Part shown: positions 35,803 through 45,223 of the stretch, in pieces
Numbering within the stretch: position 1 is the first letter of the stretch
Layout of the letters: every line of letters begins with the position of its first letter
DNA from: Thermoanaerobacter kivui
Lineage (GTDB): Bacteria > Bacillota > Thermoanaerobacteria > Thermoanaerobacterales > Thermoanaerobacteraceae
Reading direction: 5' to 3'
Length of the DNA: 64,000 bases
Assembly (NCBI RefSeq): GCF_000763575.1
Contig: NZ_CP009170.1
Coordinates: 1,367,501-1,431,500 of the forward strand
Program-made: the position numbers and the translations under genes
The notes under the pieces: model-generated
What the model was told of the DNA's origin: nothing
Databases searched by the model: none
The model's input: only the letters and a program-made list of their open reading frames with translations

Positions 35803-35841
35803 AAAATATTGTAGCATAAACATGCTAACCAATATTTTCTC

Positions 35842-35888
35842 ATATATCAATATTCTACATAACTTTTCAAAATCCTTCTAAAAAACTG
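35842..35888 (-). promoter_or_regulatory. Recurring upstream motif, copy A (before cmr1)
   Basis: Plus strand CAATATTCTACATAACTTTT then CAAAATCCTTCTAAAAA. Matches copies at 25164-25204 and 47245-47284. It lies about 40 bases upstream of the cas promoter. Confidence 0.5.
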
Positions 35889-35993
35889 TATTTTTTATAG
35901 AAAAATGTCGTCGAATGCCATAATAAAATAAGGAAAAATTCAACGCTAGTATAATTTTTTAAAATATTGATTATATATAATTTCCTAAAACAA

Positions 35994-36034
35994 AAAACAG
36001 ATGGGCAATAACATTAGTAGCCCAATCTGTTTTA
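35994..36034 (-). terminator. Terminator of the degraded gene at 36079-36265
   Basis: AAAACAGAT-GGGC (35994-36006) pairs with GCCC-A-ATCTGTTTT (36020-36034), one bulged base. On the minus strand it runs into TTTTTTG; it could also act for the plus strand. The stretch 35890-35993 shows no gene. Confidence 0.6.
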
Positions 36035-36078
36035 AACAAATTTAAATGATTATGGTATTAAAGTTAAAATTAGATATT

Positions 36079-36265
36079 TTAAGGAATGTATTGATAATGT
36101 ATCGTGCCATTATTATCAATTGTATAAGGCATATTTGCTTTCTTAAGTATCTCTACAATATTATTTTTTTCGCGGTTTTTTCATTAAATTGATTTATTAA
36201 CTCATTTATTCTTTGTGCATTTGCATTATTCCTATTTTCTTTAAAAGCAATATAAGCATCAACTC
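36079..36265 (-). pseudogene. Degraded small gene of unknown family
   Basis: Reading the minus strand with one base restored in the A-run at about 36165 gives VDAYIAFKENRNNANAQRIN...KNNIVEILKKANMPYTIDNN then GTIHYQYIP and a stop. Codon usage and residue mix look protein-like, and a terminator follows. The 5' end is lost towards the IS110 region, so no start can be given. I do not recognise the family. Confidence 0.55.
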
Positions 36266-36319
36266 TTCACCAGCCGCTATACTAATTATACATCAAAAAT
36301 GGTATTTTCATCCTCTGAT

Positions 36320-36640
36320 GGTGCCGTAGTTACGGCATAGAGGTCTATAAGGAATTGAAACATCGCACCGGCCTTGTGCTTATCACAATATCTGGATTTT
36401 TTGGATGTGGCTGAAATTTTCAATGATATGGAATTATTATGGAATACATATGCATAAGGTCGTTCTTACCTTGGTGCTTTGAGCCCGACTCATAGACAGA
36501 CTCCAACGACCAGGTGCACCACAGATTGTTGCTCCCTTTACACGGGAAGCACGCAGGATAGAATAACCCCTTATGGTTGTTGCACCAGCTATTCAATTTT
36601 ACAGTCGCTATCGTTCAAATTTTAAAAAAGGAGTTGGCTC
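36320..36640 (+). ncRNA. Candidate bridge RNA region of the IS110 element
   Basis: IS110-group elements are known to encode a bridge RNA in the non-coding end upstream of the recombinase. This stretch has no ORF and several foldable parts: TGCCGTAGTTACGGCA (perfect 7-base stem), GGTGC/GCACC enclosing it, and GGTGCACC-type complementarities further right (CTTGGTGC, CAGGTGCACC, GTTGCACC). No boundaries or guides can be proven by eye. Confidence 0.35.
36345..36361 (-). repeat. Isolated half CRISPR repeat, inverted
   Basis: CTATAAGGAATTGAAAC is the exact reverse complement of positions 1-17 of the 30-base CRISPR repeat of the main array. A 17-base exact match by chance is very unlikely in this window. 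It is in the opposite orientation to the array and lies inside the left non-coding part of the IS110 element. Confidence 0.85.
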
Positions 36641-36644
36641 TTTC

Positions 36645-37866
36645 ATGGATTTAGTTTACTCTCACGTTTGCGGATTAGATGTCCATAAAAAGAGCGTCGT
36701 AGCTTGTATAATAACACCGGAAGGTAAAGAAATCCGAACTTTTTCAACCATGACCGATGACCTTATTGCATTAAAAGAATTTATTAAAAGCAAAGGTTGC
36801 TCTGTTGTTGCTATGGAAAGTACCGGTTCTTATTGGAAACCTATTTACAATCTACTTGAGCTTGAGAGCATTAAAATCCTACTCGTCAATGCTAAGCATA
36901 TTAAAAATGTCCCTGGTAGAAAAACCGATGTAAAAGATGCTGAGTGGATAAGCAAGTCTCTTACAACATGGCCTTTTGCAAGGCAGCTTTGTGCCAGATC
37001 GTGAACAAAGAGAACTTCGCGAGCATGTCCGCTATAGAAAAAGCCTCATTGAAGAAAAATCAAGAGAACTTAATCGCATACAAAAGGTTTTAGAAGGAGC
37101 TAATATCAAACTGTCTTCGGTAGTCTCTGATATCAACGGGGCATCCAGTCGTTCTATACTTGAGGCTATTATAAATGGTGAAGAAAATCCCGAAACCCTG
37201 GCTGAGCTTTCTCAAGGCAAGCTAAAAAATAAAATGGATGAACTAAAACGCGCTTTAAAAGGCTTGATCAATCATCACCAAAGGATGCTTCTGGAAATAC
37301 AGCTTAGACATATTGATTACCTTGATGAAGAAATAGCAAAATTAGACGAAGAAATTAAAAATCGAATGCTCCCTTTTGAAAAAGACCTGGCACTGCTGGA
37401 TACAATCCCTGGAGTCGGAAGAAGAACTGCAGAACAAATAATAGCCGAAATCGGCACGAATATGGAACAGTTCCCCTCTGCTGCCCATTTGTGTTCTTGG
37501 GCAGGGTTGTGTCCAGGTCATAATGAAAGTGCTGGTAAACAAAAGTCTGCAAGAACTCGAAAAGGTAACCAAAAATTGCGAAGCTCTCTTATTGAAGCTG
37601 CCAGAGCTGCCTCAAGGGCAAAAGATACTTATCTTTCAAGTCAGTACCACCGCATCGCTGCTCGAAGAGGAGCAAACCGTGCAGCAGTTGCAGTGGCACA
37701 TAGCATTTTAATTATAGTTTATCATATTCTCAAGCAAAAGCAACCATATATTGAATTAGGTCCTACTTATTATGAAGAGAAAAAACGTAATATGATTATT
37801 CGTCAATCTTTAAAAAAGCTAGAGTCTTTAGGTCTTAAGGTCACGGTCGAATCTGCAGCGTCTTAA
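36645..37866 (+). pseudogene. IS110-family transposase with frameshift
   Basis: The first frame (36645-37004) encodes the RuvC-like DEDD domain: GLDVHKKSVVA, AMESTGSYW and the KTDVKDAEWI end. At about 36963 the reading must change frame: the first frame runs into TTWPFARQLCARS and stops, while the second frame continues as QHGLLQGSFVPDREQRELRE and on to 37866. It contains DTIPGVGRRTAEQIIAEIG (helix-hairpin-helix) and the Tnp domain PGHNESAGK...KGNQKLRSSLIEAAR with the catalytic Ser. Everything else is intact, so a single indel (two bases lost or one gained) inactivated it recently. IS110 transposases are normally one ORF, so programmed shifting is unlikely. ATG 36645 follows AAAGGAG. Confidence 0.85.
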
Positions 37867-37964
37867 CTTTTAATTTAACTTTATTAACCATTCATTTATC
37901 CCATATTTTTACATCGGTATGGGTTTAGTTTTTTGTTGCCTTTTTGAGAGACACTATTTTCAGG

Positions 37965-38046
37965 ATAGGTAGGCTAAAAACGACGAAGACATTGTGAAAA
38001 TATGGAGTTTATTTGCGTTTCAATCCCTCTTAGGTAGGCTAAAAAC
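37965..38046 (+). CRISPR. Relic of CRISPR array: half repeat, spacer, variant repeat
   Basis: 37965-37981 is positions 14-30 of the repeat (ATAGGTAGGCTAAAAAC). 37982-38016 is a 35-base spacer. 38017-38046 is a whole repeat with three changes (positions 9, 13 and 14). It has the same orientation as the main array, which starts 2.4 kb to the right. The left half repeat borders the IS110 element and the right repeat borders the cut end of tnpB. Confidence 0.85.
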
Positions 38047-39089
38047 TATTCTGCTTCCTTTTTTAACATGCCTATTATTGAGGTGTAAGAAGGATTGACT
38101 TCTATTACTTCTATCCCTTCCTTTTTTGCTAAAATTTTTATCTTTTTTAAAAGGGATTTGTAGCTAAAGTTATGTCTTATTCTCCTTGACTTTTTGCCTG
38201 AAAAGTCTCCTTTTTCTCCTTTGTTTTTTATGTCTAATTTTTCAATTACTATTGCTTTTCTTTTTTCTTTTGCTATCTTTACTATCTCATGAGCATACTG
38301 CCATCTGAAATACTCTCTTTTATCTGAATTGCCGCTTGCAAGTTCCGGCATTGGTATACTGCCATAGCTTATTAGATTTCCTTTTTCATCTACCTCTGCC
38401 CATGATATGTTGTCCGGATATGCATTTATGTCTATTCCTATGACTCCTTTTTCTTTTGTTATTTTTATTTCTGGATATTGTTCTTCAATGGCAATGTAGG
38501 CGTATATGCTGCCATTTTTGAGTTTTAATTCTACAGAGTATGGTATGTTTGATTGGGCGATTTCCTGCAGGAGTTCTTTTCTTTTTTTATTCTTTTTATA
38601 GCCTGCTTCTATTCTGGCGTATACATATTTTCTTTCCCCTACATTTATCCTTAAGAAAGTGCCATTTTCTTTTATTTCTATTCTTGTGTTGAGATTTCCT
38701 TTTTTGCTTTTATCCCCTCTTGAATAGAGATTTCCTTTTCTTTTCTCCTGCCACCTAATTTTTTATTTTTCATATGCTTTACCATTTAAATGATGTTTTT
38801 GAAGTTTTCTAAACAGTTTTTTCCCGCCAAAAATGACTTTTCTTGGACTTTTACCTAGTTCTTTCGCAGATTCCAGTGTACTCCTTGCTTTCATTATTGC
38901 ATCATCTACATATCTTGAGTTTAAATTGAATACCTGGGGTAACTTTCTTTTTAAATCTGCTCTTTTTTCTCCTTCTAAAAGTCTGTTATATGCAAATCTC
39001 ATGCAGGATGACCATCTTCTCATTAAGTCTAATACTATTTGTTTGGCTTGTTGATTTAGAAAAATAAGTTTAGCCTGTATCACTATCAT
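38046..39089 (-). pseudogene. Truncated tnpB of an IS607-type element
   Basis: TnpB family protein, ancestor-like to Cas12: the N-terminal part has RRWSSCMRFAYNRLLEG, the RuvC part GIDINAYPDNISWAEV (first Asp) and AIVIEKLDIKNKG (Glu). Two lesions: an in-frame TAA at 38763-38765 after about 108 codons, and loss of the C-terminus. The reading follows the family up to NPSYTSIIGMLK, then gives four foreign residues and a stop made from the first base of a CRISPR repeat. The zinc ribbon, third RuvC Asp and the element's right end are missing. Cannot be an active nuclease. It overlaps tnpA by 20 bases. Confidence 0.85.
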
Positions 39090-39660
39090 GTTTTTTGCCC
39101 CTTTGCCCGTAAATTCTTGCTGCGAAAGATGTTACTATTGCTATTAAGTCTTCTGCTAGCTCTTTATTTGTATCTTCTTCGTTTTCTTTCCCGTTTAAAA
39201 CTATAAGTTCCACTCCAAAGCTTTCCATGAAAAATTTGAGATATTCAAAGCCAAATCTCGCTAGTCTATCAGGATATTCTATTACAACTTTTTCAACTTC
39301 CCCTCTTTTGATTTTGTTTAGAAGCTTTAATAAACCTCTCCTGTTTTCATTTACCCCACTTGCTATTTCGAATATAACTTCATACTGCCAACCCTGAGAA
39401 TTAGCATACTCTTCAAGCCTTCTAATCTGATTTTTGAGATATTCTTCTTGCTTTTTTGTGGATACTCTTGCATATAAAACTACTTTAGGTTTCGGTTTTT
39501 CTCCCAGCATACCTAATAACTTCTCTATGTCTTCTTTTTTGTATCTTCTTCTCCCTTTTGGTGTCCTAACTGGAGTTATTAATCCTTCCTTTTCCCAGTT
39601 TATTAAAGTAATTCTGCTTATATCATATAGCTCTTTAACCTTTTTTATAGTTAACAACAT
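39070..39660 (-). CDS. IS607-family serine recombinase TnpA
   Basis: 196 residues. MerR-like helix-turn-helix (TIKKVKELYDISRITLINWE, about residues 3-22) followed by the serine recombinase domain: VVLYARVSTKKQ with the catalytic Ser (about 60-71), RLARFGFEYL (about 132-141). This is the IS607 transposase, which moves through a circular intermediate and inserts at GG-like cores. The gene is intact, from ATG 39660 (GGTGAT upstream) to the TGA at 39070, but its partner tnpB and the element's right end are broken, so the element is probably stuck. The left end should lie between 39661 and about 39745. Confidence 0.88.
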   Translation of the reverse strand: MLLTIKKVKELYDISRITLINWEKEGLITPVRTPKGRRRYKKEDIEKLLGMLGEKPKPKVVLYARVSTKKQEEYLKNQIRRLEEYANSQGWQYEVIFEIASGVNENRRGLLKLLNKIKRGEVEKVVIEYPDRLARFGFEYLKFFMESFGVELIVLNGKENEEDTNKELAEDLIAIVTSFAARIYGQRGKKHDSDTG

Positions 39661-39745
39661 TCATTATCACCAAATTAGAATTATATCATTTTTTACTATT
39701 AATTTCAACTGTTTTAACCTCCCAATGAAAGATATGCTTTTTTTA

Positions 39746-39955
39746 TTACCAATCTTCGCTTATATAAATTATCGCACCTACTTTACAGCTTTTCTGGCAA
39801 TCTCTGCATCCATAAATACAATTTTGAGGATTTTCAACCACAGGTTTCCCTGATGTTTGCTTAAACACCCCACGGTTGCAAATATTTTTGCATGCTCCAC
39901 AGCTTGTACATTTGCTGTAATCAATGATCGGATACCAAACTTTTTCCATTGTCAT
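39746..39955 (-). CDS. Small 4Fe-4S ferredoxin-type protein
   Basis: 69 residues with two cysteine groups: CTSCGACKNIC (about residues 16-26) and CIYGCRDCQKSC (about 46-57), each close to the CxxCxxCxxxC pattern of [4Fe-4S] ferredoxins. In the second group the spacing is C-x3-C-x2-C-x3-C, slightly unusual. Likely an electron carrier or cluster donor. It starts eight bases after the NifX-like gene, so the two are one unit; NifX/NifB-domain proteins with small ferredoxins are common in anaerobes, often near Mrp/ParA-type scaffold genes, which are absent here. Start: ATG 39955, or the ATG two codons later with better spacing to TAGGGT. Confidence 0.85.
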   Translation of the reverse strand: MTMEKVWYPIIDYSKCTSCGACKNICNRGVFKQTSGKPVVENPQNCIYGCRDCQKSCKVGAIIYISEDW

Positions 39956-39962
39956 ACCCTAA

Positions 39963-40319
39963 TCAGCTTTCGTAATGTCCTTTATGTTCATGTTTTTCAC
40001 AGACACTGCCCGTGGAAATAAGAGTCCCTTCAATGTACCTTTTTACAAGATTTTTAATAAAACCTGATGCACCGGTTATTACGTTTATACCATTCTGATT
40101 GAAAAGTCCTACGGCACTCGCACCCATACCTCCTGCAATTACACATTCTGCACCTTGTTCTTTTAAGAATCCGGGCAGAAAACCAAGTCTGTGCCCTGGA
40201 TTTGGTATAAACAATTCATTTTTAATTTCTCCGTTTTCTATATCAAATAAAGCAAATCTCTCACAATGTCCAAAATGCATAGATACATTTTTACTCTCTG
40301 CAGCTACTACTATCCTCAT
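39963..40319 (-). CDS. NifX/NifB-domain (dinitrogenase iron-molybdenum cofactor family) protein
   Basis: 118 residues of the NifX-like fold: MRIVVAAESKNVSMHFGHCERFALFDIE at the start, CVIAGGMGASAVGLFNQNGINVITG (about 59-83) in the middle, and a His/Cys tail (CEKHEHKGHYES) that may bind metal. Family members carry iron-sulfur or FeMo-cofactor precursors; in organisms without nitrogenase, as seems likely here, they are of unknown role. ATG 40319 follows AAAGGAG. It stands between the IS607 remnant and the trailer end of the CRISPR array, with no functional link to either visible. Confidence 0.88.
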   Translation of the reverse strand: MRIVVAAESKNVSMHFGHCERFALFDIENGEIKNELFIPNPGHRLGFLPGFLKEQGAECVIAGGMGASAVGLFNQNGINVITGASGFIKNLVKRYIEGTLISTGSVCEKHEHKGHYES

Positions 40320-40403
40320 TTTTTCTTACTCCTTTCTTTCAAATAATTTTCTATTTTGTTCTCTACGCTTCACATCTTCTTTATCCTTGCATTTCATTAT
40401 ATT

Positions 40404-43400
40404 ACTGTTTTGTTAATTAGGTAGGCTAAAAACCTAAATGTTGCAAAAGACGCATACCACTGTGTAAGATGGTTTCAATTCCTTACAGGTAGGCTAAAAA
40501 CAACCTCCTCTATTTCAATTTCTAACCTCGGAATATTGTTTCAATTCCTTATAGGTAGGCTAAAAACTAATGAATTTAAAGCTAAGCCATCTCAGTTTTT
40601 TTGGTTTCAATTCCTTATAGGTAGGCTAAAAACTATAGACGTGCTTTTAGCAAGGTCAGGTGTTAAAAGGTTTCAATTCCTTATAGGTAGGCTAAAAACC
40701 AATTTGGCAGAAAAGGAGGATACAGATGGACATGAGGTTTCAATTCCTTATAGGTAGGCTAAAAACCCTGCTGCGATTTTAGCAGCAATAGACATTCTTT
40801 GTTGTTTCAATTCCTTATAGGTAGGCTAAAAACTCTTGACACTCCAGAACCAGTGCCTGCAGGAGTGTAGTTTCAATTCCTTATAGGTAGGCTAAAAACC
40901 CTGCTTTGACGGTATGTAAACGGCAATCCTCCTGGTGTTTCAATTCCTTATAGGTAGGCTAAAAACATGCTCCCGACTTCAGCCATTGCCTTCACCATCC
41001 CAAGTTTCAATTCCTTATAGGTAGGCTAAAAACTCTGCAGAGCTAATCATCAGCCCAGAGCCGTTGTGCGGTTTCAATTCCTTATAGGTAGGCTAAAAAC
41101 CTTTATCTTTCAAAAGCAGTGCATCGTTCAAATTGTGTTTCAATTCCTTATAGGTAGGCTAAAAACGGTTTAACACCGCTGTTTAAAGTCAACAAAAGCG
41201 ATAGTTTCAATTCCTTATAGGTAGGCTAAAAACAACCAGAGCCAACCAGTTTACGGCTTGTATCTACCGGTTTCAATTCCTTATAGGTAGGCTAAAAACT
41301 GCTTTCATTTCATGTGTTGCACCTATGATGGCATAGTTTCAATTCCTTATAGGTAGGCTAAAAACGCACATGTGGGGCGCGTAAGAAATACCCCACCCGG
41401 CAGTTTCAATTCCTTATAGGTAGGCTAAAAACTTCTGCATATCCGCCCCATTCTAAATAGCTGCCACTACGTTTCAATTCCTTATAGGTAGGCTAAAAAC
41501 CACTTCAAACGACAAGTCACGCATTTTCATCACCCGTTTCAATTCCTTATAGGTAGGCTAAAAACCCCGTCCAGGAGGGAGTTTATTACATCGTCTCCCT
41601 CCGTTTCAATTCCTTATAGGTAGGCTAAAAACCTGTATATGACTTCCATGTATGCCCTTTGGGTAGTAGTTTCAATTCCTTATAGGTAGGCTAAAAACCA
41701 CAATGATTAAAGAACCACTCTGATGGGCGCCCTGGTTTCAATTCCTTATAGGTAGGCTAAAAACACCAAGAAGCGCGCAGGCGCTTCTTGGTAGATTTCC
41801 GTTTCAATTCCTTATAGGTAGGCTAAAAACGGTGCTTCGTTTGTCAAGGGACACCTTTCCGGTAGCGTTTCAATTCCTTATAGGTAGGCTAAAAACAGTC
41901 CTCCCACTCCGGAGGAACATCCGGAGGTAGGCGTTTCAATTCCTTATAGGTAGGCTAAAAACTAGCAGGTCCGCCAGTATGGGGAAAATTGTCAAAGTCG
42001 TTTCAATTCCTTATAGGTAGGCTAAAAACTCGCTTTTTCAGCCTTTCTTAATGCTATGTCGCTAGTTTCAATTCCTTATAGGTAGGCTAAAAACTTTTTC
42101 TTGCAATGCGTTGCACAAGCTGTCATGACAGTTTCAATTCCTTATAGGTAGGCTAAAAACAAGGAGGTAGAGCAGTCATGAAGTACCGCGTTTTTAGTTT
42201 CAATTCCTTATAGGTAGGCTAAAAACGGATAAAACCGCAGGACCTTTTTGCCGTGCTGCAGAGGTTTCAATTCCTTATAGGTAGGCTAAAAACAAGCGTG
42301 GTGCGGGGTGCCCGGAGGGTGCGAACGTGGGTTTCAATTCCTTATAGGTAGGCTAAAAACAATTTCAAGGTTATATAAGTCAAACAGATTATTTGGTTTC
42401 AATTCCTTATAGGTAGGCTAAAAACCCTTCATGGCGCAGGATAGCAAAATGCATTCTCAGAAAGTTTCAATTCCTTATAGGTAGGCTAAAAACTTGTTTT
42501 GCTCCTGAGATTTTCGCTCCATCGTTCTTGTTTCAATTCCTTATAGGTAGGCTAAAAACGAAGCTAAGCTGGGAAACATCGGCTGGGGCATTGCTGGTTT
42601 CAATTCCTTATAGGTAGGCTAAAAACACACCGCACGTGGGAGCCCGGCACTGGGTACAGGGGTTGTTTCAATTCCTTATAGGTAGGCTAAAAACCAACGT
42701 AATCGCTGTGGTAGGTGAGGCGGCTTGGATGGCGTTTCAATTCCTTATAGGTAGGCTAAAAACTTCCTTTACTCAGCTTTTACTTTATCTCTTCCCATTG
42801 TTTCAATTCCTTATAGGTAGGCTAAAAACAGAAAGCCCGCCAAGCTTTGTTGAAAATTCTTGTACGTTTCAATTCCTTATAGGTAGGCTAAAAACGAGGA
42901 AGAGGAAGCAGAAGCGGAAGTATTTGCAGACGTTTCAATTCCTTATAGGTAGGCTAAAAACTCGTATGCTCTGCTCATAAAAGGATTAGCCCGCATTTGT
43001 TTCAATTCCTTATAGGTAGGCTAAAAACTGACCATGCTAAGGGTACGGTGACGGTAAAGATGGAGTTTCAATTCCTTATAGGTAGGCTAAAAACTACATG
43101 GTGCTACAGGAAGAAAACGGAGACTGGGTGCGTTTCAATTCCTTATAGGTAGGCTAAAAACTCTATCGCCGCGTTACGCAGAGTTTCTTCCGTTACAGTT
43201 TCAATTCCTTATAGGTAGGCTAAAAACTATGGCTGCTTAGCTCCTATAAGGTTACATTTATAAAAAGTTTCAATTCCTTATAGGTAGGCTAAAAACCCAA
43301 GGACATTTGGAATATGCAGGGAATATTCTTCAGTTTCAATTCCTTATAGGTAGGCTAAAAACTTGTTATTAAGTTTATAGGCGTTAAAGGAATTCCACGT

Positions 43401-45026
43401 TTCAATTCCTTATAGGTAGGCTAAAAACTGGGGCGACTTGAATACCCTTGGGCTAACCTGGGAAGTTTCAATTCCTTATAGGTAGGCTAAAAACGGTTGG
43501 CAAGACCCGTAAAGCGTTTTGCCAAAGAATGGGTTTCAATTCCTTATAGGTAGGCTAAAAACAGGCTTACAGAAGCAGGAAGAGGCATCTTGTTTCTGGA
43601 GTTTCAATTCCTTATAGGTAGGCTAAAAACCGTCCTGTATCCAGAAAGGAGGACGAGCCAGATACGTTTCAATTCCTTATAGGTAGGCTAAAAACGAGCT
43701 TTTGCATCAAGAACAATAATAGGTTCATCATTGTTTCAATTCCTTATAGGTAGGCTAAAAACCAGTATCCATCGCTATCCTTATTTTCACTTCTTCCCCA
43801 GTTTCAATTCCTTATAGGTAGGCTAAAAACTTGGTTCGCTACCTGTTCTAAAGAAAACGTACAAAGGTTTCAATTCCTTATAGGTAGGCTAAAAACTGGT
43901 TATGGAACAGTTACTAAGGGTATAGCAGATATATGTTTCAATTCCTTATAGGTAGGCTAAAAACTAGCCCGGATAACAAAGCCCTCTGCTCCTAATTCCT
44001 GTTTCAATTCCTTATAGGTAGGCTAAAAACAGCCGTCGGCCATAATTTCTTTTGCCTCTTCTACAGGTTTCAATTCCTTATAGGTAGGCTAAAAACTTAT
44101 TTAAGTTCTCCTTCTATTTCTGAGTCTCTTTCGTTTCAATTCCTTATAGGTAGGCTAAAAACCAGGCTTATTAAGTGAAAGATGAAACATAATATCATGT
44201 TTCAATTCCTTATAGGTAGGCTAAAAACATTTCTGCGCCTGTCTATGCACCTGACTTGCCTGGGTTTCAATTCCTTATAGGTAGGCTAAAAACTATAATG
44301 TAAAATAGGAAAATATAAAATCTCCTCCCGTTTCAATTCCTTATAGGTAGGCTAAAAACGTAGATAAGTTGCCACAGATTCACTTTGGCGCTGTGGGTTT
44401 CAATTCCTTATAGGTAGGCTAAAAACTTGATAGAAGCAGCGGTTTTTGAGATGAATATTGTATTGTTTCAATTCCTTATAGGTAGGCTAAAAACTTCTTT
44501 TATTCATGGGAGGTTCATTCTTCTATGAAAGGTTTCAATTCCTTATAGGTAGGCTAAAAACACGTTTCTAAAGCTAGGAATACTAGGATCAGAATAGGTT
44601 TCAATTCCTTATAGGTAGGCTAAAAACGGTGGAAGGAGTACAGTAATCCTAACCGTTCTATTCGTTTCAATTCCTTATAGGTAGGCTAAAAACGCCCTGA
44701 TTTGCCTATCCAGCATTCTATCATATTGTGGTTTCAATTCCTTATAGGTAGGCTAAAAACGCAGTTAGGTGCTACCACTGCTTTTTCGGCCTCTCAGGGT
44801 TTCAATTCCTTATAGGTAGGCTAAAAACCTGATATCCTGCGAAAGTAGCAGGTCTACCTGCTTGGTTTCAATTCCTTATAGGTAGGCTAAAAACTAAAGG
44901 TTCAGTTTTTATAAAACAGGCGAAAAATTAGTTTCAATTCCTTATAGGTAGGCTAAAAACGTAAGACAAATTGCCATGGCTGTTGCTGGTATATCAGTTT
45001 CAATTCCTTATAGGTAGGCTAAAAAC
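40404..45026 (-). CRISPR. CRISPR array, 70 repeats and 69 spacers
   Basis: Repeat of 30 bases; on the plus strand it begins GTTTCAATTCCTTATA and ends GGTAGGCTAAAAAC. I count 70 units from 40404 to 45026, spacers mostly 35-39 bases. On the minus strand the repeat ends ATTGAAAC, the handle typical of type I-B/III crRNAs, so transcription should run right to left from the AT-rich leader at 45027. The leftmost copy (40404-40433) has lost its first half, as expected for the old trailer end, and the next (40472-40501) has one change (TTACAG). The other 68 look identical. No cas1, cas2 or cas6 is in the window, so processing and spacer uptake must use genes elsewhere. Confidence 0.97.
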
Positions 45027-45146
45027 CCATTATAATCAAATATAATAAAGAACAAATTTTTCTTTTTTCATCTTATCTGTCAAGTATTTTAACTTTATTA
45101 TACCATATTGTTTGACAAAATCAACTATTTTATAAAATTGAAAAAA
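45027..45146 (-). promoter_or_regulatory. CRISPR leader and promoter
   Basis: About 120 bases of very AT-rich DNA next to the first repeat. On the minus strand TTGATT (45124-45119) and TATAAT (45102-45097) are 16 bases apart, a good sigma-A promoter; a second possible -35, TTGACA, lies closer to the array (around 45080). No ORF. Confidence 0.75.
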
Positions 45147-45147
45147 T

Positions 45148-45201
45148 AATTTGTCGTCGATCCTCAACATTTTTTGCATTATCTTAGGTCGACGACAAAT
45201 T
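45148..45201 (-). terminator. Long inverted repeat between mscL and the CRISPR leader
   Basis: AATTTGTCGTCGA (45148-45160) pairs perfectly with TCGACGACAAATT (45189-45201), extended by CCT/AGG with one bulge. On the minus strand the right side runs into ATTTTTTC, so it can terminate mscL transcription. The nine bases TGTCGTCGA recur at about 35905-35913 upstream of the cas operon, so a regulatory role is also possible. Confidence 0.6.
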
Positions 45202-45223
45202 TATATTAATCAATATTCTTACC

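What the first reader, a model, noticed from the sequence alone, without database searches (positions are those of the whole stretch)
38046..39660. IS607 tnpB cut off at a CRISPR repeat
The tnpB reading follows the family up to MLK, then four foreign codons lead into a stop codon made with the first base of the repeat at 38017-38046. So the 3' part of tnpB, its guide RNA and the element's right end are lost at, or within about 17 bases of, a CRISPR repeat. A premature TAA lies further upstream. The junction suggests recombination or deletion that ended in a spacer, possibly the same event series that brought in IS110.
Basis: partly seen in the sequence, partly recalled or inferred. Interest (0 to 1): 0.55.

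Follow-up and report, generated by a model that had tools for sequence, protein, structure and literature searches.

The report
Broken IS607 fragment interrupting CRISPR array
A jumping-gene fragment and two small genes sit inside an old part of a bacterial CRISPR array; the jumping gene is cut short where it meets a spacer, which is a genomic scar and not a new system.

Summary
tnpB reads like the family to codon 343 (…GMLK, last family base 38061). Then 14 foreign bases (38047-38060) lead into a TAG completed by the edge base of CRISPR repeat 38017-38046. All 8 other copies in the genome and all 11 relatives' copies read continue [YF][AS][PL]Q instead. About 547 bp are missing: 135 codons and the right end.

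The interpretation needs changing. In three related genomes the same two flanks enclose one CRISPR array without IS607. Here a 2,356-bp segment (38061-40416: truncated IS607, ferredoxin gene, NifX-like gene) lies between two stretches of CRISPR DNA: its left edge in a spacer, its right edge at a half repeat (40417-40433). The tnpB break is therefore most likely the edge of a segment joined into the oldest part of one array, perhaps trimmed later. Non-homologous joining fits (Ku is encoded); no reciprocal tnpB 3' piece was found. Nearness to a repeat means little: 88% of positions in such an array are that close. IS110 stands in orthologous arrays without IS607, so it is probably a separate event. 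A two-array deletion remains possible. Ordinary genome decay; low interest.

The parts
36264..36362 (-). IS110 left end plus left half of a CRISPR repeat (36345-36361), inverted relative to the IS110 body
   Evidence: matches IS110 left ends of relatives in opposite orientation
36456..37964 (+). IS110 body and right end; the transposase is split into two frames
   Evidence: 97-98% DNA identity to copies in G001, G008, G009; NF033542 182 bits on the second frame; two overlapping ORFs
37965..37981 (+). right half of the CRISPR repeat interrupted by IS110 (ATAG core + GTAGGCTAAAAAC)
37982..38016 (+). 35-nt spacer, found nowhere else in 20 family genomes at up to 3 mismatches
38017..38046 (+). CRISPR repeat of second type (GTTTCAATCCCTCTTAGGTAGGCTAAAAAC)
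   Evidence: Rfam CRISPR-DR2 44.6 bits; 62 exact copies in the genome, 61 of them in the 2.27-Mb array
38047..38060 (+). 14-nt remnant of a spacer; its first bases complete the TAG stop of the tnpB reading
38061..39089 (-). tnpB remnant, codons 1-343 of 478, premature TAA at 38763-38765
   Evidence: (TIGR01766)
39070..39660 (-). IS607 tnpA (MerR + serine recombinase), frame open
   Evidence: NF033518 229 bits, cut-off 110; PF00376, PF00239
39714..39719 (-). IS607 left end next to a GGGAGG motif downstream of the ferredoxin gene
39746..39955 (-). ferredoxin-like gene, 69 aa
   Evidence: Fer4 families; no hit better than 49% aa identity in 20 relatives
39963..40319 (-). NifX/NifB-type gene, 118 aa
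   Evidence: PF02579 72 bits; best relatives about 64% aa identity
40417..40433 (+). right half of a CRISPR repeat (TTAGGTAGGCTAAAAAC): right edge of the segment
   Evidence: identical to 38030-38046
40472..45026 (+). main array, 69 repeats of first type (68 exact)
45027..45220 (-). leader side of the array
   Evidence: 96-99% identity to the leader side of arrays in G001 and G009

Best explanation
A 2,356-bp piece of DNA (38061-40416), holding a NifX-like gene, a ferredoxin gene and the left 1.65 kb of an IS607 element, was joined into the leader-distal part of one type III-associated CRISPR array. The tnpB break is the piece's left edge, and its right edge falls inside a repeat. If the array was contiguous, at least about 34-40 bp (the rest of one spacer and the left half of the next repeat) were lost. 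Shown: the truncation; CRISPR DNA at both edges; one array between the same flanks in three relatives; no reciprocal 3' piece. Inferred: that this was one array; that joining was non-homologous, with at most a few bases of shared T at the left edge; that it happened in one step and not as an insertion later trimmed by a deletion. The tnpB remnant cannot be a working nuclease: it has a premature stop and lacks the last 135 codons, which by the known TnpB layout (recalled) hold the third RuvC acid, and the right end is missing. tnpA is open, but this copy cannot move without a right end (inference).
For: Family continuation past codon 343 in 8 of 8 other copies of the genome and 11 of 11 relatives. 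Synteny: in G001, G002 and G008 distal flank, one array, leader side and mscL follow each other, and in G009 the array, leader side and mscL do; none of these stretches matched IS607, ferredoxin or NifX DNA. Both edges are CRISPR DNA, and 17 nt at the right edge are identical to the second-type repeat. No NifX-CRISPR or tnpB-CRISPR junction in 60 relatives. The other right ends in the genome belong to their own copies; the one orphan piece (2072791-2073042) starts 67 bp past the break point and has no CRISPR repeat near it. Ku is encoded (PF02735, 194.7 bits).
Against: The half repeat at 40417 also resembles a naturally decayed last repeat: in G002 the orthologous array ends in TTTTTAGGTAGGCTAAAAAC, so it may be an array end and not a cut repeat. 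The repeat at 38017 is of another type than the main array (3 differences), which one array does not predict by itself. No donor of the segment was found. The spacer that held the 14 nt was not found elsewhere.
Confidence: 0.7

Rival explanations
1. Two arrays in tandem: the unit at 37965-38060 is the oldest end of a second-type array, 40417-45026 is a separate array with its own decayed last repeat, and a large deletion from tnpB into a spacer removed the rest of the first array, its leader and the IS607 right end.
For: Repeat type differs; 40417-40433 resembles the decayed last repeat of G002; the genome has a second array of that repeat type, beside another cas10-like gene.
Against: Three relatives have a single array between these flanks; no second leader was seen in the window.
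Confidence: 0.2
2. The second-type repeat and its spacer were copied here from the 2.27-Mb array by recombination between arrays; the tnpB junction is a by-product.
For: Exact repeat identity.
Against: Neither the 35-nt spacer nor the 14-nt remnant is in that array.
Confidence: 0.06
3. Assembly artefact joining multicopy IS607 to a multicopy repeat.
For: Both partners are multicopy.
Against: The junction is in 14 unique bases, not at shared sequence; the copy carries private changes including a stop; the genome is one contig.
Confidence: 0.03
4. A natural short C-terminus of this IS607 tnpB.
For: None found.
Against: 0 of 19 copies read end or diverge there.
Confidence: 0.01

Closest known systems
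CRISPR arrays split by IS elements in Thermoanaerobacter (PMC4852346, passages read)
   Same: Mobile DNA interrupting CRISPR repeats in this genus; IS110, and an ATAG duplication for an IS in a repeat
   Different: Here a multi-gene segment with a broken IS607 at one edge, and no clean element end at either edge
IS607 elements with RNA-guided TnpB (PMC11061315, passages read)
   Same: tnpA serine recombinase plus tnpB; left flanks AGGAGG in 5 of 7 copies of the genome, as the published AGGAG motif
   Different: This copy lacks the 3' part of tnpB and the right end; even an intact copy gave no RAGATH-18 match in Rfam
CRISPR-DR2 repeat family, type III-B-like cas locus
   Same: Repeats match RF01315; Csx11, Cmr4 and RAMP genes beside it
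   Different: Array interrupted by 2.36 kb

Membership tests
IS607 family | tnpA: MerR-type HTH plus serine recombinase domain | tested here: met
   NF033518 229.4 bits, cut-off 110; PF00376 and PF00239
IS607 family | tnpB of the TnpB family after tnpA | tested here: met
   TIGR01766 78.7 bits on the remnant, cut-off 32; NF040570 only 59.7 bits, below its cut-off of 100
IS607 family | complete right end with guide-RNA region | tested here: not met
   546-547 bp missing against 7 of 7 copies
IS607 family | no terminal inverted repeats, no target duplication | tested here: inconclusive
   flanks of 7 copies viewed side by side, no empty sites compared
RAGATH-18-guided TnpB group | RAGATH-18 RNA downstream of tnpB | tested here: not met
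   no match at gathering score on 5 other copies or at E up to 5 on L002
CRISPR array | repeat with regular spacing next to cas genes | tested here: met
   the interrupted unit has one full repeat, one half repeat and one spacer
IS110 family | IS110 recombinase with a fixed insertion core | tested here: met
   NF033542 182 bits, cut-off 140; CAGG|ATAG in 20 of 20 right junctions read

The most novel reading that the evidence does not exclude
The ferredoxin and NifX-like genes were captured into the array by repair of a break in it, and now ride on the array's own transcript: they lie on the strand expected for pre-crRNA, downstream of the 69-repeat part, so a CRISPR leader would drive metabolic genes.
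Probability: 0.05. Interest if true: 0.45.

Novelty: new member of a known kind. Interest (0 to 1): 0.18.

Why it matters
It shows how an old CRISPR array decays: mobile elements and foreign DNA settle in its leader-distal end. It also corrects the reading of the junction from 'a transposon cut at a repeat' to 'a segment joined into an array'. It does not point to a TnpB-CRISPR interaction.

Tried and rejected
Reciprocal product: the right-end region searched in the genome gave 8 right ends belonging to their own copies, one internal orphan piece at 2072791-2073042 starting 67 bp past the break, and the window's own 34 bases; no partner of the junction.

Spacer origin: the repeat edge plus the 14 nt gave 0 matches in genome contigs (records near the window's own genome may be left out there); the 35-nt spacer gave 0 in phages and only the window itself in 20 family genomes. 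No spacer of the two arrays compared equals the 35-nt or 14-nt sequence.

Spacers against IS607, IS110 and the segment: I looked for long matches; the part of the output in view showed only short ones (longest exact one 15 nt), and the middle of the output was cut, so this is not a complete negative.

Cas1-Cas2-like insertion: no repeat duplication at the edges. IS110-driven insertion: the right edge reads TTAG, not the ATAG seen at 20 of 20 IS110 right junctions, and the left edge is in a spacer.

Donor of the NifX-ferredoxin pair: only distant relatives.

A solved-structure search with intact TnpB gave nothing at E <= 0.001, so the catalytic acids are placed from recalled family knowledge.

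Full report
What was checked. The window is G000:C1:1367501-1431500 of a single 2,397,824-base contig. The size and the CRISPR/type III-B layout resemble the published Thermoanaerobacter kivui chromosome (2.397 Mbp in PMC4320612, passages read; its table gives 2397289 bp, not identical). The species name is therefore an inference.

The observation. On the minus strand tnpA (39660-39070) overlaps tnpB (from 39089). tnpB has a TAA at 38763-38765 (codon 109) and then reads on to …NPSYTSIIGMLK KEAE stop. Seven other copies in the genome align up to window base 38061 and no further, and all continue TATGCGCCGCAGTA… = YAPQY. An eighth, 88% copy does the same. In 11 relatives' loci, one per genome, 11 of 11 continue [YF][AS][PL]Q (one search had read seven of these on the wrong strand). 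The 11 are loci that the search returned, not all its hits. The window's element has lost 546-547 bp to the conserved right end (…GGTAACCAG, 7 of 7 copies), including 135 of 478 codons. The foreign part is 14 bases, 38047-38060; the stop is TAG, with its G on the repeat's edge base 38046.

How special is the place? In a 66-nt unit of repeat and spacer, 88% of positions lie in a repeat or within 14 nt of one. The closeness to a repeat follows from the break being in an array and needs no other cause.

The repeats. The main array (40472-45026) has 69 repeats, 68 exactly GTTTCAATTCCTTATAGGTAGGCTAAAAAC. The repeat beside tnpB is GTTTCAATCCCTCTTAGGTAGGCTAAAAAC, the type of the 86-repeat array at 2.27 Mb. 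The genome has 62 exact copies, 61 in that array and this one. One of 19 other family genomes, G003, has it too (501 copies). The 35-nt spacer between this repeat and the IS110 half repeat was found only here among 20 family genomes.

Orthologous loci. In G001 the window's distal flank (35831-36267, 93%), an IS110 in a repeat, one array, the leader side (96%) and mscL follow each other. In G002 the distal flank, a 17-repeat array, the leader side and mscL follow each other without IS110. In G008 there is the distal flank, IS110, 43 repeats, the leader side and mscL. In G009 there is IS110, 42 repeats and the leader side at 99%; its distal flank was not detected in the stretch. G007 and G004 have the flanks without repeats in the stretches read, and G005's contig ends inside the array. 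None of these stretches matched the IS607, ferredoxin or NifX DNA. So the 2,356 bp 38061-40416 are an extra segment here. Its right edge is the half repeat TTAGGTAGGCTAAAAAC at 40417-40433, identical to 38030-38046. Against this: G002's natural last repeat is also only a right half (TTTTTAGGTAGGCTAAAAAC), so 40417 may be a true array end; this keeps the two-array rival alive.

The segment. The NifX-type gene (PF02579) and ferredoxin gene (Fer4) are open. Their best relatives in 60 genomes are about 71% in DNA over NifX only, and about 49% aa for the ferredoxin in 20 genomes. The IS607 left end follows GGGAGG behind the ferredoxin gene. In 7 of 7 other copies the left end follows GG (AGGAGG in 5 of 7) and the right end is followed by an ATG within 6-13 nt, i.e. 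the element sits in likely ribosome-binding sites. This agrees with the AGGAG target-adjacent motif published for IS607 TnpBs (PMC11061315, passages read). By analogy, a gene once followed the ferredoxin gene here and is lost with the right end (inference).

Mechanism. No reciprocal 3' piece was found in the genome and the left edge has at most a few T of ambiguity, so homologous exchange is unlikely. Ku is encoded, and the likely species is reported as naturally competent (PMC12056078, passages read), so end joining of a DNA piece into a broken array is plausible. One-step joining and insertion followed by trimming cannot be told apart with one genome.

IS110. Its right junction reads CAGG|ATAG in 20 of 20 junctions read, 15 of them in CRISPR repeats at one position (the set was chosen by a query that held the half repeat, so the proportion is biased). 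IS110 insertion in Thermoanaerobacter CRISPR repeats is in print (PMC4852346, passages read). Because it stands in orthologous arrays that lack IS607, it is probably independent of the tnpB break.

Literature on this junction. Searches for IS110 with CRISPR repeat, IS607 with CRISPR array and tnpB, and T. kivui with CRISPR and transposase gave no title or abstract start describing this junction. I read passages of PMC6352166, PMC4852346, PMC10883916, PMC11061315, PMC12056078 and PMC4320612 only, and the rest only as listings.

Verdict.

Noticed in passing
L002-L008 (seven IS607 copies of the genome): All seven insertions sit between a GG (AGGAGG in five) and an ATG 6-13 nt downstream: the element seems to target ribosome-binding sites, in line with the published AGGAG motif of IS607 TnpBs.
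   Followed up: partly
window 37965-37981 and relatives' loci (L063, L066, L067, L069, L119): One IS110 group inserts at one position of CRISPR repeats: 15 of 20 right junctions read lie in repeats, all 20 with ATAG. Insertion in repeats is published, but whether a bridge RNA matches the repeat was not tested.
   Followed up: partly
window 36264-36455: The IS110 left end with a half repeat and about 36 nt of spacer-like DNA is inverted against the IS110 body, and the transposase is frame-shifted.
   Followed up: partly
L072 11337-13110 (G000 about 2.266-2.268 Mb): The leader-distal end of the 2.27-Mb array has no decayed last repeat and abuts unrelated DNA (a 272-aa ORF) and an IS110-like transposase fragment.
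   Followed up: no
G003:C15: 501 exact copies of the second repeat type were counted in this one genome; those listed lie on contig C15.
   Followed up: no
G000:C1:2072791-2073042: Orphan 252-bp internal piece of the IS607 3' region, 93% identical, apart from the other IS607 right ends.
   Followed up: partly
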